Source: Microcella flavibacter
GTDB taxonomy: Bacteria > Actinomycetota > Actinomycetes > Actinomycetales > Microbacteriaceae
Length of the DNA stretch: 64,000 nt
Assembly (NCBI RefSeq): GCF_012530535.1
Contig: NZ_CP051299.1
Location: 868,001-932,000, forward strand
Direction of reading: 5' to 3'
The notes beneath the pieces were generated by a model. That model had not been told where the DNA came from and did not search any database. It was given only the letters and a program-made list of their open reading frames with translations. The position numbers were made by a program, and so were the translations under genes. Shown here piece after piece: positions 9,463 through 14,817 of the stretch (position 1 is its first letter; each line of letters begins with the position of its first letter).

Positions 9463-9463
<1 letters not shown>

Positions 9464-11655
9464 CAGATGCCCTTCGGGTACTCGATGCGGAGGATGTGCA
9501 CGGGCTCGACGAACGCGTTGAGGCGCACGTAGTTGTGCTCGCCCCAGCGGTAGCGCTCGCCGGTGATGAGGTCCTTCACGTCGAAGGTCGCGCCCTCGGG
9601 CAGGCCGAGCGCGGCGAGGTCGAGGTGCACGGTCGTCTCGCGCTGCGAGTGCGGGTCGACGTTGGCGACGACGATGATGCCGTCGGTGCGGCCCGAGCGC
9701 ACGAAGCGGCCGGGGGTGACCTTCGAGTAGACGAGGATCGCCTCGTCGTCGCTCCAGTGCACGCGCAGGTTGCGCAACTGGCGCAGCGCCGGGTGCTGGG
9801 CGCGGATCTCGTTGAGCCTCGTGAGGTAGGGCGCGATCGTGCGCCCCTCGGCGGCGGCCGCATCCCAGTCCCGCGCCTTGTACTCGTACTTCTCGTTGTC
9901 GATGTTCTCCTCGCTGCCGGGGCGGGCCACGTTCTCGATGAGCTCGTATCCGGCGTACACCCCCCAGCTCGGGCTGGCGGTGGCGGCGATCGCGGCGCGC
10001 ACCTTGTAGGCCGGCACGCCGCCGAACTGCAGGTACTCGGTGAGGATGTCGGGAGTGTTGACGAACAGGTTCGGGCGGAACCACGCGCTCGTCTCCTGCG
10101 ACAGCTCGGTGAGGTACTCCTCGAGCTCGACCTTCGTGTTGCGCCAGGTGAAGTACGTGTACGACTGCTGGAACCCGGCACCCGCGAGCGACTGCATCAT
10201 CGCCGGTCGCGTGAAGGCCTCGGCGAAGAACACGACGTCGGGCCGCTCCTCGGCGACCTCGTGCAGCAGCCACTCCCAGAAGTCGAGCGGCTTCGTGTGC
10301 GGGTTGTCGACGCGGAAGATCGTGACGCCCTGGTCGATCCAGTGCCGCACGAGGCGCAGCACCTCAGCCCGGATCCCCTCCGGGTCGTTGTCGAAGTTCA
10401 CCGGGTAGATGTCCTGGTACTTCTTCGGCGGGTTCTCGGCGTAGGCGATCGAGCCGTCCGGCAGCGTCGTGAACCATTCGGGATGCTCGCTCACCCACGG
10501 GTGATCGGGCGCGCACTGCAGCGCGAGGTCGATGGCCACCTCGATGCCGAGCTTCTTCGCCGCGCCGACGAAGGCGCGGAAGTCGTCGAGCGTGCCCAGG
10601 TCGGGGTGCACGTCGAAGTGCCCGCCGTCGCTCGAGCCGATCGCCCAGGGGCTGCCGGGATCGTTCGGGCCCGGGGTCAGGGTGTTGTTCGGCCCCTTGC
10701 GGTTGACGCGACCGATCGGGTGGATCGGCGGCAGGTAGAGCACGTCGAAGCCCATCTGGGCGACGGCCGGCAGGCGCCGGGTCGCGGTCGAGAAGGTGCC
10801 GCTGACCCACGAGCCGTCCTTGCGCCGCTTGGCGCCCTCGCTGCGGGGGAAGAACTCGTACCAGGATCCGACGCCGGCGCGGGTGCGCTCGACCCGGATG
10901 GCGAGCTGCTCGCTCTCGGTCTCCAGGCTCGCGAGGCGGTGCCGGGCGAGCGCGGCCGTCACGCGGGCGTCGTTCGCCGCGCCCAGGCGGGCGGCCGGGG
11001 TGCTCGTCTTCTTCATCATGGCGGTGCGGGCATCCCGCAGCACCTTCTGATCGGGCGTGCCCGCGGCGAGCTCGGCGGCGCGCTCGAGCAGCTGGGCGCC
11101 GGCGAGCAGCATGACCTCGACGTCGACGTCGGCCTCGATCTTGACGGTGGCGTTGTGGTGCCAGGTGGCCCAGTCGTCGGTGTAGGCCAGCACGTGCCAG
11201 TGCCAGGTGCCCTCGGCGTCGAGCTGCGCCTCGGCGTGCCAGCGGTCGCTGCCCTTGGTGCCGGGGGAGAGGGGGATGCTCTGCCGAGCTTCGTCGGGGG
11301 CGACGAGCACCACGTCCGCGCCGAGCTTGTCGTGGCCCTCGCGGAAGACGGTGGCGGCGAAGGGGACGACCTCGCCGACGACGGCCTTGCTCGGCCAGCG
11401 GTCCTCCGGCTGGCGGGGGGAGAGGTGGCGGATCGGGATGCGCCCGATGCGCGCGGCGAACGGCTGCGGGGCGGCGGCACCGGCTGCCGGCGTCGGTGCG
11501 GGGGCTGCCGGAGCGGGCGCTGCCGGGGAGGCTGCCGCGGCGGGCGCGGGTGCGGACGCCGGTGCGGGGGCGGCCGGTTCCGGGGCGGCCGGCGGCATCG
11601 CGCGCGGGGTGGTCGTCGACTTCGGGCGGGACGGGGGCTTCGGTTTCTGTGCCAC
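9463..11655 (-). CDS. glgE: alpha-1,4-glucan:maltose-1-phosphate maltosyltransferase GlgE
   Basis: 730 residues. GlgE transfers maltose from alpha-maltose-1-phosphate to the non-reducing end of alpha-glucan. Residues 1 to about 60 are a Pro/Ala-rich linker; the rest aligns by eye with GlgE, including [41 protein letters not shown] with the likely nucleophile Asp450, and [11 protein letters not shown] with Glu479. The start is GTG at 11655. A TACGGT -10 box ends exactly six bases before it, so the mRNA is probably leaderless. No TreS, Pep2 or GlgM gene is in the window, so the source of maltose-1-phosphate must be encoded elsewhere. Confidence 0.96.
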
Positions 11656-11661
11656 TAGTCG

Positions 11662-11667
11662 ACCGTA
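11662..11667 (-). promoter_or_regulatory. -10 box of glgE, leaderless type
   Basis: On the minus strand the hexamer is TACGGT, followed by CGACTA and the GTG start. The six-base spacing predicts transcription starting at the start codon. Confidence 0.6.
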
Positions 11668-11785
11668 CTCCCCGGCCCGGTCGAGCGGGCTTGCGACATT
11701 GCGCGGGTTCTCAGCGGCGGGCGCACTCCGCGGTGAACCAGATTCACCTACATTCCGGCGATGTCGGCATTAGGGGGGACAAAAT

Positions 11786-11803
11786 GTACCCCGGCCGGGG
11801 TAC
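11786..11803. promoter_or_regulatory. 18-bp perfect palindrome, candidate operator
   Basis: GTACCCCGGCCGGGGTAC reads the same on both strands. It lies about 120 bases upstream of the glgE -10 box and about 60 bases upstream of the small-RNA candidate. Its form (TACCCC...GGGGTA) resembles operators of CsoR/FrmR-type repressors, but nothing in the window identifies the binding protein. Confidence 0.5.
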
Positions 11804-11849
11804 GCGAATACTGGTCATCTCCCTGCGGATGCCTCGGCGGAGTCGTACA

Positions 11850-11990
11850 GTCGTAGACGAGGGAGCACGAACCGCAGGGAGTACCCGGTCCCCGCGAGTT
11901 CTCCCCCCGAACGAGCACGTCGCCACCCGAAGGCGCACGTGAACCAGGATCGAGCCCCGTGTCCCCCGCACGGAGGGCTCGATCCTGCTC
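11850..11990 (+). ncRNA. candidate 6C RNA (actinobacterial C-loop small RNA)
   Basis: Two hairpins with C-rich loops lie in tandem. Hairpin 1 (11898-11912) is GTTC, loop TCCCCCC, GAAC. Hairpin 2 has a perfect 13-bp stem (11945-11957 with 11975-11987), a 4-bp inner stem CGTG/CACG and the loop TCCCCCG. 6C RNAs of actinobacteria are defined by two stem-loops whose loops contain runs of about six C; here the runs are six and five. Hairpin 2 can double as the terminator. A possible -10 (TACAGT, 11846-11851) lies just upstream, with no clear -35. The exact 5' end is a guess; a covariance search with the Rfam 6C model would decide. Confidence 0.65.
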
Positions 11991-12186
11991 GTCGTTAACG
12001 AGGCATCGCCGCAAGGCGATCGACCCGGTCGGGGCCGTCCGAGCGGCGCCGACCGGGCCGCCCCGTCCGCACGCCGAGGCGGTCGCGAGGGCACTTCCGA
12101 TGGGGTGTCGTCCCGTGCCCGGGCCCCCTCGTCTGGAACGGTTCTGCGGGCCGGATGTGGAACCTCGGGAACGGCGATCGGTCGCC

Positions 12187-12192
12187 TAGGCT
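12187..12192 (+). promoter_or_regulatory. -10 box of glgP
   Basis: TAGGCT, giving a leader of about 65 bases to the GTG at 12265. GAGGAGTG at about 12249-12256 is the ribosome-binding site. Confidence 0.5.
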
Positions 12193-12264
12193 GTCCCCTC
12201 GCGGGCGTATGCCGGCGCGATGCGCGCCCGTTCCCCGCCCGATCCGCACGAGGAGTGATGACCT

Positions 12265-14817
12265 GTGAAGGCGATCCGCCGATTCACCGTCCGAACCGTT
12301 CTTCCCGAGCGCCTCGCCGCCGTCGGCGACCTCGCGGCCAACCTGCGCTGGTCGTGGCACGAGCCCACCCGCCGGCTGTTCGAGCGCGTCGACCCCGCGC
12401 GCTGGGAGGAGCTCGGCCATGACCCCATCGCCCTCCTCGGCGAGGTCGACCCCGCCCGCCTCCAGCAGCTCGCCGACGACCAGCACTTCGTCGCCGACGC
12501 CGAGGCCCTGCGCGCCGACCTGCACGCGTACCTCGCCGAGCCCCGGTGGTACCAGGGGCTCGAGGGCGCTCCGGCCCGCATCGCGTACTTCTCGCCCGAG
12601 TTCGGCATCGCCAGCGCCATCCCGCAGTACTCCGGCGGGCTCGGCATCCTCGCCGGCGATCACCTCAAGAGCGCATCCGATCTCGGCGTGCCCCTCATCG
12701 GCGTCGGCCTCTTCTACCGCGCGGGCTACTTCCGCCAGGCCATCGACCGCGACGGCTGGCAGAAGGAGACCTACCCGCTCATCGACCCCGACGGCCTGCC
12801 GATGCAGATGCTGCGCGAGCACGACGGCACCGCCGTGCGCATCACGCTCGCCCTGCCCGGCGGCGAGGCCATGCACGCCCGCGTCTGGCAGATGGCGGTC
12901 GGCCGCGTCGTGCTGCTGCTGCTCGACACCGACATCCCCGAGAACTCCGACGGCCTGCGCGGCGTCACCGACCGCCTCTACGGCGGCGGCGGCGAGCACC
13001 GCCTGCTGCAGGAGCTGCTGCTCGGCATCGGCGGCGTGCGCGCCATCACGAGCTACCTCGCCGTCTCGGGCACGCCCGCTCCCGAGGTCTTCCACACCAA
13101 CGAGGGTCACGCCGGGTTCCTCGGGCTCGAGCGCATCAGCGACCTGATCGCCGAGGGTCTGAGCTTCGACGAGGCCCTGCAGGTCATCCGGGCCGGCACG
13201 CTCTTCACCACCCACACGCCCGTCCCCGCCGGCATCGACCGCTTCGAGAACGGCCTCATCGAGCGCTACTTCTCCACCGGCCTGCTGCCCGGCGTCGACG
13301 TGCACGACGTGCTCGCGCTCGGCCGCGAGGACTACGACGGCGGCGACGCCGGGGTCTTCAACATGGCCGTCATGGGCCTGCGCCTCGCGCAGCGCGCCAA
13401 CGGCGTCTCGCAGCTGCACGGCGACGTCTCGCGCGGCATGTTCGGCCAGCTCTGGCCGGGCTTCGACCAGGCCGACGTGCCCATCACCTCGGTGACGAAC
13501 GGCGTGCACGCCCCCACCTGGACCGACCCGCTCATGGTGCGCCTCGTCCACGAGAAGCTCGGCACCTACGAGACGAGCACCGCCGACTGGGCGAGCGACG
13601 CCATCAGCGACGAGGAGCTGTGGTTCGTGCGCCGCTCGATGCGCGAGCAGCTCGTCACCGACGCGCGCGCCCGGGTCGCCGCCGCCTGGAGCGAGGAGAA
13701 CGGCTCCGTCGCCCCGCCCAGCTGGATGGACGACCTGCTCGACCCCGACGTGCTCACCATCGGCTTCGCGCGCCGCGTGCCGACCTACAAGCGCCTCACC
13801 CTCATGCTGCACGACGAGGCCCGCCTGCGCGCCCTGCTCACCGACCCCGAGCGGCCCGTGCAGCTCGTCATCGCCGGCAAGTCGCACCCCGCCGACGACG
13901 GCGGCAAGGCGCTCATCCAGAAGCTCGTGCAGTTCAGCCAGGATCCCGAGCTGCGCCGCCGCATCGTGTTCCTGCCGAACTACGACATCGCCATGGCGCG
14001 CCTGCTCTACCCGGGCACCGACATCTGGCTCAACAACCCGCTGCGCCCGCTCGAGGCCTGCGGCACCTCCGGCATGAAGGCCGCGCTCAACGGCTCGCTC
14101 AACCTCTCCATCCTCGACGGCTGGTGGAACGAGTACTACGACGCCGAGAACGGCTGGGCCATCCCGACCGCCGACTCGGCCGGCGACGACGCCGAGCGCG
14201 ACAAGCTCGAGGCGAACGCCATGTACGACCTCATCGAGCACCAGATCGCGCCGCGCTTCTACGACCGCGACGCCGAGGGCCTCCCGCGCCGCTGGCTGCA
14301 GAACATCCGCCACACCCTCGCCACCCTGTCGCCCGAGCTCTCGGCCGACCGCATGGTCGCCGAGTACGTGCAGCGGCTCTACATGCCGGCGGCGGATGCC
14401 CAGCGCACGATCATCGCCGACCACCACGCGCCCGCCCGCGAGCTCTCCGCCTGGAAGTCGCGCGTGCGCGCCGCATGGCCCGGGCTCTCGGTCGCGCACG
14501 TGGAGTCGGGCGGCGTCGAGTCGCCGCAGCTCGGCGACGCGCTGCAGGTGCGCGCGCACGTCGACCTCGGCTCGCTCGAGGCCGACGACGTGCGCGTCGA
14601 CGTGGTCTTCGGCCGCGCCGACGAGGGCGACGACCTCGCCGACGTGCGCACCCAGACCCTGCAGCTCGTCAGCCACGAGATCGGCCACCCGGCGACCTTC
14701 GCCGGCACGGTGCCGCTGCAGCGCTCCGGCTCGTTCGGCTACAACGTGCGGGTGACCCCGCGGCACGACCTGCTCGCCAACCCGGCCGAGCTCGGACTCG
14801 TCGCGGTCGCCCACTAG
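12265..14817 (+). CDS. glgP: alpha-glucan (glycogen/maltodextrin) phosphorylase GlgP
   Basis: 850 residues, GT35 family, of the shorter bacterial/archaeal type. It releases glucose-1-phosphate from alpha-1,4-glucan. Visible features are YFSPEFGIASAIPQYSGGLGILAGDHLK near residue 110, the repeated phosphorylase core, and EACGTSGMKAALNG carrying the pyridoxal-phosphate lysine at about Lys605. The GTG start at 12265 has GAGGAG about 10 bases upstream. It diverges from glgE-glgB, so synthesis and breakdown genes share one regulatory gap. An 89-bp repeat follows 40 bases after the stop. Confidence 0.96.
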   Translation: MKAIRRFTVRTVLPERLAAVGDLAANLRWSWHEPTRRLFERVDPARWEELGHDPIALLGEVDPARLQQLADDQHFVADAEALRADLHAYLAEPRWYQGLEGAPARIAYFSPEFGIASAIPQYSGGLGILAGDHLKSASDLGVPLIGVGLFYRAGYFRQAIDRDGWQKETYPLIDPDGLPMQMLREHDGTAVRITLALPGGEAMHARVWQMAVGRVVLLLLDTDIPENSDGLRGVTDRLYGGGGEHRLLQELLLGIGGVRAITSYLAVSGTPAPEVFHTNEGHAGFLGLERISDLIAEGLSFDEALQVIRAGTLFTTHTPVPAGIDRFENGLIERYFSTGLLPGVDVHDVLALGREDYDGGDAGVFNMAVMGLRLAQRANGVSQLHGDVSRGMFGQLWPGFDQADVPITSVTNGVHAPTWTDPLMVRLVHEKLGTYETSTADWASDAISDEELWFVRRSMREQLVTDARARVAAAWSEENGSVAPPSWMDDLLDPDVLTIGFARRVPTYKRLTLMLHDEARLRALLTDPERPVQLVIAGKSHPADDGGKALIQKLVQFSQDPELRRRIVFLPNYDIAMARLLYPGTDIWLNNPLRPLEACGTSGMKAALNGSLNLSILDGWWNEYYDAENGWAIPTADSAGDDAERDKLEANAMYDLIEHQIAPRFYDRDAEGLPRRWLQNIRHTLATLSPELSADRMVAEYVQRLYMPAADAQRTIIADHHAPARELSAWKSRVRAAWPGLSVAHVESGGVESPQLGDALQVRAHVDLGSLEADDVRVDVVFGRADEGDDLADVRTQTLQLVSHEIGHPATFAGTVPLQRSGSFGYNVRVTPRHDLLANPAELGLVAVAH

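What the first reader, a model, noticed from the sequence alone, without database searches (positions are those of the whole stretch)
11850..11990. Candidate 6C small RNA in the divergent glgE/glgP region
Seen: two consecutive hairpins with C6 and C5 loops, the second with a 13-bp perfect stem, in a gap with no protein gene. Known: 6C RNAs are widespread actinobacterial small RNAs defined by C-rich loops in two hairpins. Inference: a 6C RNA is encoded between the alpha-glucan synthesis and breakdown operons, making a link to glycogen metabolism worth testing.
Basis: partly seen in the sequence, partly recalled or inferred. Interest (0 to 1): 0.6.

Follow-up and report, generated by a model that had tools for sequence, protein, structure and literature searches.

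The report
New Microcella small RNA, not 6C

Summary
Promoter (-10 11846-11851), RNA (~11858-11999) and upstream twin palindromes (11762-11804) are conserved at the glgE/glgP junction in 23 of 26 Microcella genomes and in no other Microbacteriaceae sampled with comparable score. Rfam 6C gives no match here, whereas a sub-threshold, syntenic 6C RNA lies between acs and a tadA-type gene at G000:C1:480329-480409. Both RNAs share a similar upstream operator, also found before acs, a glycosyltransferase-2 gene and a giant surface protein. The glycosyltransferase leader carries the same ACCCGAA-loop hairpin in the same sense, so I favour a decoy or competitor RNA for a shared unknown partner; loop-antisense pairing (6C-like) is the main rival. 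A direct glycogen link is unsupported: two species lost the whole cassette while keeping glgE, glgP and their promoter motifs. Transcription itself was not shown here.

The parts
11762..11781 (.). Upstream palindrome 1, TGTCGGC..GGGGGGACA (half-site type TGTCCnCC)
   Evidence: Conserved in 22 distinct sRNA loci; related sites before the GT2 gene and before acs/6C
11785..11804 (.). Upstream palindrome 2, TGTACCCC-GGCC-GGGGTACG, starting 23 bp after palindrome 1; candidate transcription-factor operator
   Evidence: Most conserved block of the junction (82-94% identity); in the own genome the exact 18-mer palindrome occurs once; model R2 places related sites elsewhere
11823..11828 (+). -35 element of the sRNA promoter (CTGCGG; TTGnnn in most relatives), 17 bp before -10
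   Evidence: Read from the homologous loci. The strict sigma-70 scan found none; inference from conservation
11846..11851 (+). -10 element TACAGT; start site predicted near 11858
   Evidence: TAnnnT at this place in all but one or two species; start site is inference
11858..11999 (+). The small RNA, about 140 nt (predicted ends)
   Evidence: CM R1 finds it in 23 of 26 Microcella genomes; covariation
11869..11901 (+). Hairpin A, loop core ACCCGG at 11883-11888 (ACCCGA in 19 of 22 species)
   Evidence: All 8 pairs show compensatory changes in the refined alignment; GGGA/TCCC pairs at probability 0.99
11903..11908 (+).
   Evidence: Hairpin probability 0.00; C6 here only in the two closest species
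11916..11941 (+). Hairpin B, loop ACCCGAA at 11925-11931
   Evidence: Loop ACCCGA in 21 of 22 species, stem covaries, probability 0.998
11945..11987 (+). Terminal hairpin (13 bp + 5 bp) with CCCCC loop at 11963-11967; terminator-like, tail CTCGTCGTTAAC to 11999
   Evidence: base of stem CAGG..CCTG present in all 22, loop C>=5 in 14 of 22
9463..11655 (-). glgE, divergent neighbour; GTG start matches a conserved leaderless arrangement (-10 at 11667-11662, minus strand)
12265..14817 (+). glgP-type phosphorylase, downstream neighbour with its own promoter (-10 TAGGCT 12187-12192)

Best explanation
It is an independently transcribed, genus-specific small RNA of about 140 nt: own promoter, three hairpins, the last one acting as terminator. 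Part shown: the unit is conserved as DNA, its stems covary, and its hairpin loops are nearly fixed as ACCCGA(A). Part inferred: it is switched on together with the 6C RNA, acs, a glycosyltransferase-2 gene and a giant surface-protein gene by one unknown transcription factor that binds the twin TGTnC..CCCC palindromes. It presents two (sometimes three) ACCCGAA loops that imitate the hairpin in the 5' leader of the glycosyltransferase mRNA. It thereby competes for the factor, most likely an RNA-binding protein, that reads this hairpin in the mRNA, so that more sRNA frees or silences the mRNA. The C-rich terminal loop may add 6C-like pairing with G-rich ribosome-binding sites.
For: RNA gene: CM R1 hits 23/26 Microcella genomes, 17/19 of those with good completeness; pairs 84% of cells against 28-43% when slid, covariation 0.356 against at most 0.114, 18 of 29 pairs with changes on both sides; the model-fitted alignment agrees. 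Loops: ACCCG(A/G) nearly fixed while the stems around them change. Own unit: promoter and palindromes conserved; G007/G009 lost the whole cassette at once. Shared control: operator model R2 also hits the GT2 leaders (E down to 1.5e-13; these were in its training set), acs promoters and, weakly, the 6C promoter. Shared loop: the leaders of the GT2 gene in 7 species have -10, a further ACCCGA and a hairpin with ACCCGAA loop and stems of 6-9 bp just before the start codon, whereas the 64-kb window has only one such hairpin with a 5-bp stem and none with 6 bp on either strand. Same-sense loops cannot pair with each other, which points to a common partner. Surface-protein leaders of G009, G010 and G022 also carry ACCCG(G)AA hairpins; G009 lacks the sRNA, so the loop seems to have a use without it.
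Against: No transcript data; no partner protein or RNA identified. The GT2 gene is found in only 7 of 26 genomes while the sRNA is in 23, so the GT2 leader cannot be the only reason for its conservation. Sharing of promoter plus hairpin could partly reflect duplication. The operator match at the own-genome 6C promoter is weak (E = 0.058). MFE folds of two of the six GT2 leaders (L119, L124) do not show the simple two-level structure.
Confidence: 0.45

Rival explanations
1. Antisense sRNA working like 6C/B11: the CCC cores of the ACCCGAA loops and the C-rich terminal loop pair with G-rich ribosome-binding sites and repress translation.
For: 6C/B11 works this way: either C-rich loop of B11 represses a target with a G6 tract (PMC10470900). 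The terminal loop is C5-C6 in 14/22 species and in some identical to a 6C loop of the genus (GATTCCCCCCAATC). A conserved G5-G7 tract sits at the ribosome-binding site of the giant surface-protein gene in the same operator set.
Against: The C run is lost or shortened in 8/22 species, so it is not the constrained part; the fixed flanks (A before, GAA after CCC) are not needed for G-tract pairing; the surface-protein gene is absent from this genome; no target with UUCGGGU was sought genome-wide.
Confidence: 0.33
2. Genuine 6C RNA that has diverged.
For: C-rich terminal loop; upstream operator of the same kind as the 6C gene of the genus; similar size.
Against: No 6C covariance hit; the syntenic 6C lies at acs/tadA in the own genome and eight other genomes and scores 28.9-39.8 bits; three hairpins instead of two abutting ones; first two loops are ACCCGAA.
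Confidence: 0.05
3. Cis-acting leader or attenuator of glgP (or an upstream part of the glgE control region) rather than a free RNA.
For: It lies upstream of glgP on the same strand; the operator sits between glgE and the RNA and could also serve glgE.
Against: Ends in a terminator-like hairpin before a separate conserved glgP promoter; lost without change of the glgE and glgP promoter motifs in G007/G009; other family members have no such element.
Confidence: 0.07
4. Decoy of an ANTAR-domain antiterminator (like EutX/Rli55): dual hairpins bind an ANTAR protein.
For: Dual hairpins with a conserved loop A and G, related hairpins in mRNA leaders; ANTAR-target RNAs are widespread in actinobacteria (PMC8164766).
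Against: ANTAR targets need hexanucleotide loops with A1 and G4; here the hairpin-B loop is ACCCGAA (7 nt, G at 5) and the hairpin-A loop is about 9 nt.
Confidence: 0.05

Closest known systems
6C RNA (RF01066; B11 of mycobacteria)
   Same: Actinobacterial sRNA with hairpin loops containing C runs, 3' hairpin with C-rich loop, intergenic with its own promoter; in this genus it has an upstream operator of the same kind and in some species the same terminal loop
   Different: Three hairpins, not two abutting ones; the first two loops are ACCCGAA; no covariance hit; located at glgE/glgP, not acs/tad; found only in Microcella
CsrB/RsmZ-type and EutX/Rli55-type decoy sRNAs (from general knowledge)
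   Same: Repeated hairpins with a fixed loop motif that also occurs in mRNA leaders near the start codon
   Different: Loop motif ACCCGAA is not the GGA motif of CsrA nor the A1/G4 hexaloop of ANTAR; no protein partner known
CsoR type-2 operator (upstream palindrome only)
   Same: TACCCC..GGGGTA pseudopalindrome (PMC3902906: ATATACCCCTNAGGGGTATAT)
   Different: 4-bp centre here against 3-5 bp in the listed CsoR sites; arranged as twin palindromes with TGTCCnCC; the sites seen are not near copper genes
RamA boxes of Corynebacterium glutamicum (upstream palindromes only)
   Same: Runs CCCC/GGGG; target set includes an acetate gene, acs (PMC4847777: A/T/C-GGGG-N and A/T/C-CCCC-N)
   Different: Motif here is longer and palindromic; no RamA homologue was searched for

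Membership tests
6C RNA (RF01066) | Match to the Rfam covariance model at or above 47 bits | tested here: not met
   No match in the window, none at E<=10 in 11600-12200, none in ten homologous loci at E<=5
6C RNA (RF01066) | Two stem-loops, each with about six or more C in the loop | tested here: not met
   Two of three loops are ACCCGA(A/G); the C6 run at 11903-11908 is a linker in the predicted fold
6C RNA (RF01066) | Conserved neighbourhood: ssd-like gene in L041, acs/tadA-type genes in Microcella | tested here: not met
   glgE/glgP in all 23 genomes; the syntenic 6C is elsewhere
6C RNA (RF01066) | Pairing of C-rich loops with G-rich mRNA targets | not testable with these tools
   Needs expression and mutation experiments
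Independently transcribed bacterial sRNA | Own promoter, conserved covarying structure, 3' terminator-like hairpin, no coding capacity | tested here: met
   the U-tract is weak (CTCGTCGTTAAC) and transcription is not shown
ANTAR-target RNA | Two hairpins with hexanucleotide loops, A1 and G4 | tested here: not met
   Loops of 7 and about 9 nt; in ACCCGAA the G is at position 5
Protein-decoy sRNA (CsrB-like, in kind) | Repeated loop motif shared with regulated mRNA leaders | tested here: met
   Two loops in the sRNA; ACCCGAA hairpin in GT2 leaders of 7 species
Protein-decoy sRNA (CsrB-like, in kind) | Binding and titration of a specific RNA-binding protein | not testable with these tools
   Needs pull-down or EMSA
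CsoR operator | TAC/GTA inverted repeat with the CsoR centre length | tested here: inconclusive
   TACCCC-N4-GGGGTA here; CsoR sites with N3-N5 in PMC3902906

The most novel reading that the evidence does not exclude
A Csr-like post-transcriptional system of actinobacteria: an unknown RNA-binding protein reads ACCCGAA hairpins in leaders of exopolysaccharide and surface-protein mRNAs, and this sRNA, controlled by the same transcription factor as 6C RNA and acs, titrates it, tying cell-surface construction to carbon status.
Probability: 0.3. Interest if true: 0.78.

Novelty: new variant of a known kind. Interest (0 to 1): 0.55.

Why it matters
Little is established about how actinobacterial sRNAs such as 6C act without known Hfq or CsrA. 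Here a small RNA has a fixed loop motif that also stands in an mRNA leader of the same apparent operator set, in a harmless genus, with natural loss in two species. That gives a direct handle: one loop mutant, one reporter and one pull-down could reveal a partner protein. It also ties 6C RNA and acs in this genus to one recognisable operator, which gives 6C a testable regulator.

Tried and rejected
6C membership: rejected. Weak CM hits in other genera (G163, G191, G233, G291; L036-L039): in the two inspected closely the hit lies beside unrelated genes (metE-like and aldo/keto-reductase-like ORFs), and G163 is an ordinary terminator hairpin; taken as chance. L091 and L093, which have two ACCCGA motifs upstream of glgP: these lie in what reads as coding sequence without matching hairpins. 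Small peptide across the terminal hairpin: frame not conserved. CsoR and RamA as the regulator: resemblance only. Literature on ACCCGAA, Microcella sRNAs, glgE/glgP sRNAs and Csr-like systems in actinobacteria: nothing relevant found in the papers held. The Mai 2019 and Pahlke 2016 papers on 6C are not held.

Full report
What was checked. The interval lies between glgE on the minus strand and a glgP-type phosphorylase on the plus strand.

The observation. The second hairpin is exact: 13 perfect base pairs (11945-11957 with 11975-11987), a 5-bp inner stem and a C5 loop. The first hairpin is only a 4-bp stem and is not predicted to form (probability 0.00); its left arm closes another hairpin. 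C-rich loops with short stems are common in this GC-rich window (19 with stems of at least 5 bp), so the loop composition by itself was not evidence. The fold of the whole strand is far better than shuffles (z -4.76).

It is a conserved RNA gene. In 23 loci (22 distinct) glgE and glgP flank the same order of elements: two palindromes, a -35/-10 pair with TAnnnT, hairpin A, hairpin B, and a terminal hairpin with a CAGGaCCG/CGGtCCTG base followed by a short TTCGTCGTTAAC-like tail. On a plain MAFFT alignment the proposed pairs are formed in 84% of cells; sliding the partners by one to three columns gives 28-43%; the covariation score is 0.356 against at most 0.114, and 18 of 29 pairs have changes on both sides. 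The model-fitted alignment, which leans towards the structure and includes one antisense artefact row, gives 86% and 20 pairs. Against this variation the loop of hairpin A is ACCCGA in 19 of 22 species (ACCCGG in this genome and its nearest relative, TCCCGA in one) and the loop of hairpin B is ACCCGA in 21 of 22. The terminal loop is less constrained: C5-C6 in 14, C3 in four, ACCCGAA in one, no C run in three (counted by eye).

Distribution. A covariance model built from the alignment finds the RNA in 23 of 26 Microcella genomes and with comparable score in none of the other Microbacteriaceae among 300 family genomes (that search used strict filters). Of 28 non-Microcella glgP loci fetched, 24 have glgE divergent in the flank, most with shorter gaps, and the model finds nothing there. 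G007 and G009 have lost operator, promoter and RNA together while both flanking promoter motifs remain; G015 is incomplete and had no glgP hit. So the cassette is a separate unit and is not needed for glgE or glgP to be kept.

Not 6C. Rfam 6C has no match here or in homologues. Among 198 genomes of the order, 37 have a 6C match, so the family is present in the order; one fetched 6C locus (L041) is canonical at 76.4 bits and lies beside an ssd-like gene (my reading of the ORF). In Microcella a syntenic RNA with two hairpins and two C-rich loops lies between acs and a tadA-type gene: own genome G000:C1:480329-480409 at 28.9 bits, G009 at 35.2, seven others at 33.8-39.8 bits, all below the gathering score of 47. 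Taking these as 6C rests on synteny and shape, not on the curated threshold. The whole-genome 6C search missed the own-genome copy because it is sub-threshold.

Shared control. A sequence-only model of the twin palindromes (trained on the sRNA and GT2 sites) finds those sites again and further ones: upstream of acs in many species, with the 6C RNA divergent on the other side, and before a gene for a giant surface protein of about 3,250 residues. In the own genome the hits besides the two training sites are weak (E 0.058 at acs/6C, 0.089 elsewhere). The arrangement metabolic gene, operator, divergent small RNA occurs twice: acs/6C and glgE/this RNA. Which factor binds is unknown; CsoR-like and RamA-like motifs are partial look-alikes only.

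Shared loop. The second strong operator site of the own genome precedes a gene for a glycosyltransferase of family 2. Its orthologues in seven species have, between -10 and start codon, a further ACCCGA and a hairpin whose loop is ACCCGAA, with stems of 6-9 bp that differ between species. Hairpins of this type with 6-bp stems are absent from both strands of the 64-kb window, and one has 5 bp. Some surface-protein leaders have ACCCG(G)AA hairpins too (L182, L183, L185), and nearly all have a G5-G7 tract at the ribosome-binding site, complementary to the C6 loops of 6C; in G009 the complementarity to its 6C loop is 10 bp, GAUUCCCCCC with GGGGGGAAUC (read by eye).

Mechanism. Shown: a conserved, covarying RNA unit with nearly fixed loops, an operator shared in kind with named genes, and the same loop in mRNA leaders. 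Inferred: transcription, coregulation, and function. Because sRNA and leader carry the loop in the same sense they cannot pair with each other; the simplest reading is one partner recognising both, with the sRNA as competitor. I put the decoy reading at about 0.45 and loop-antisense pairing at about 0.33; both could be true, with ACCCGAA loops for one and the terminal C loop for the other. That it is an RNA gene of its own I would put at about 0.93, and that it is not the orthologue of 6C at about 0.95.

Limits. No expression data; no genome-wide target scan; the operator model was trained partly on the sites it is then said to share; genus sampling includes close relatives; the promoter of the own genome deviates at -35 (CTGCGG) and the strict promoter scan found nothing.

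Noticed in passing
L167:1630-1710 (own genome G000:C1:480329-480409); also L154-L157, L159-L161, L169: Syntenic 6C RNA of Microcella between acs and a tadA-type gene, below Rfam's gathering score (28.9-39.8 bits against 47) and therefore missed by routine annotation.
   Followed up: partly
L119-L125, leaders of a family-2 glycosyltransferase gene: 5' leader with outer stem, ACCCGA in the internal loop and inner hairpin with ACCCGAA loop just before the start codon; possible cis-regulatory RNA element.
   Followed up: partly
L174-L185, leaders of a ~3,250-residue surface protein: Conserved G5-G7 tract at the ribosome-binding site, complementary to 6C loops; a strong candidate 6C target in this genus (10 bp in G009). 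Gene absent from the own genome.
   Followed up: partly
11651-11668: Conserved GTGGC start plus -10 (TACGGT on the minus strand) suggests a leaderless glgE mRNA in most Microcella species.
   Followed up: no
12134-12192: Conserved TGGAACCGGTTCC-type palindrome and TAGGCT/TAGAGT -10 upstream of glgP, looks like a LacI-family operator at the glgP promoter.
   Followed up: no
12019-12063: Strong GC-rich inverted repeat (CCGGTCGG..CCGACCGG) between the sRNA terminator and the glgP promoter; perhaps a second terminator.
   Followed up: no
L015 (G010) terminal hairpin: The terminal loop is ACCCGAA instead of a C run, which suggests the two loop types can replace each other.
   Followed up: no
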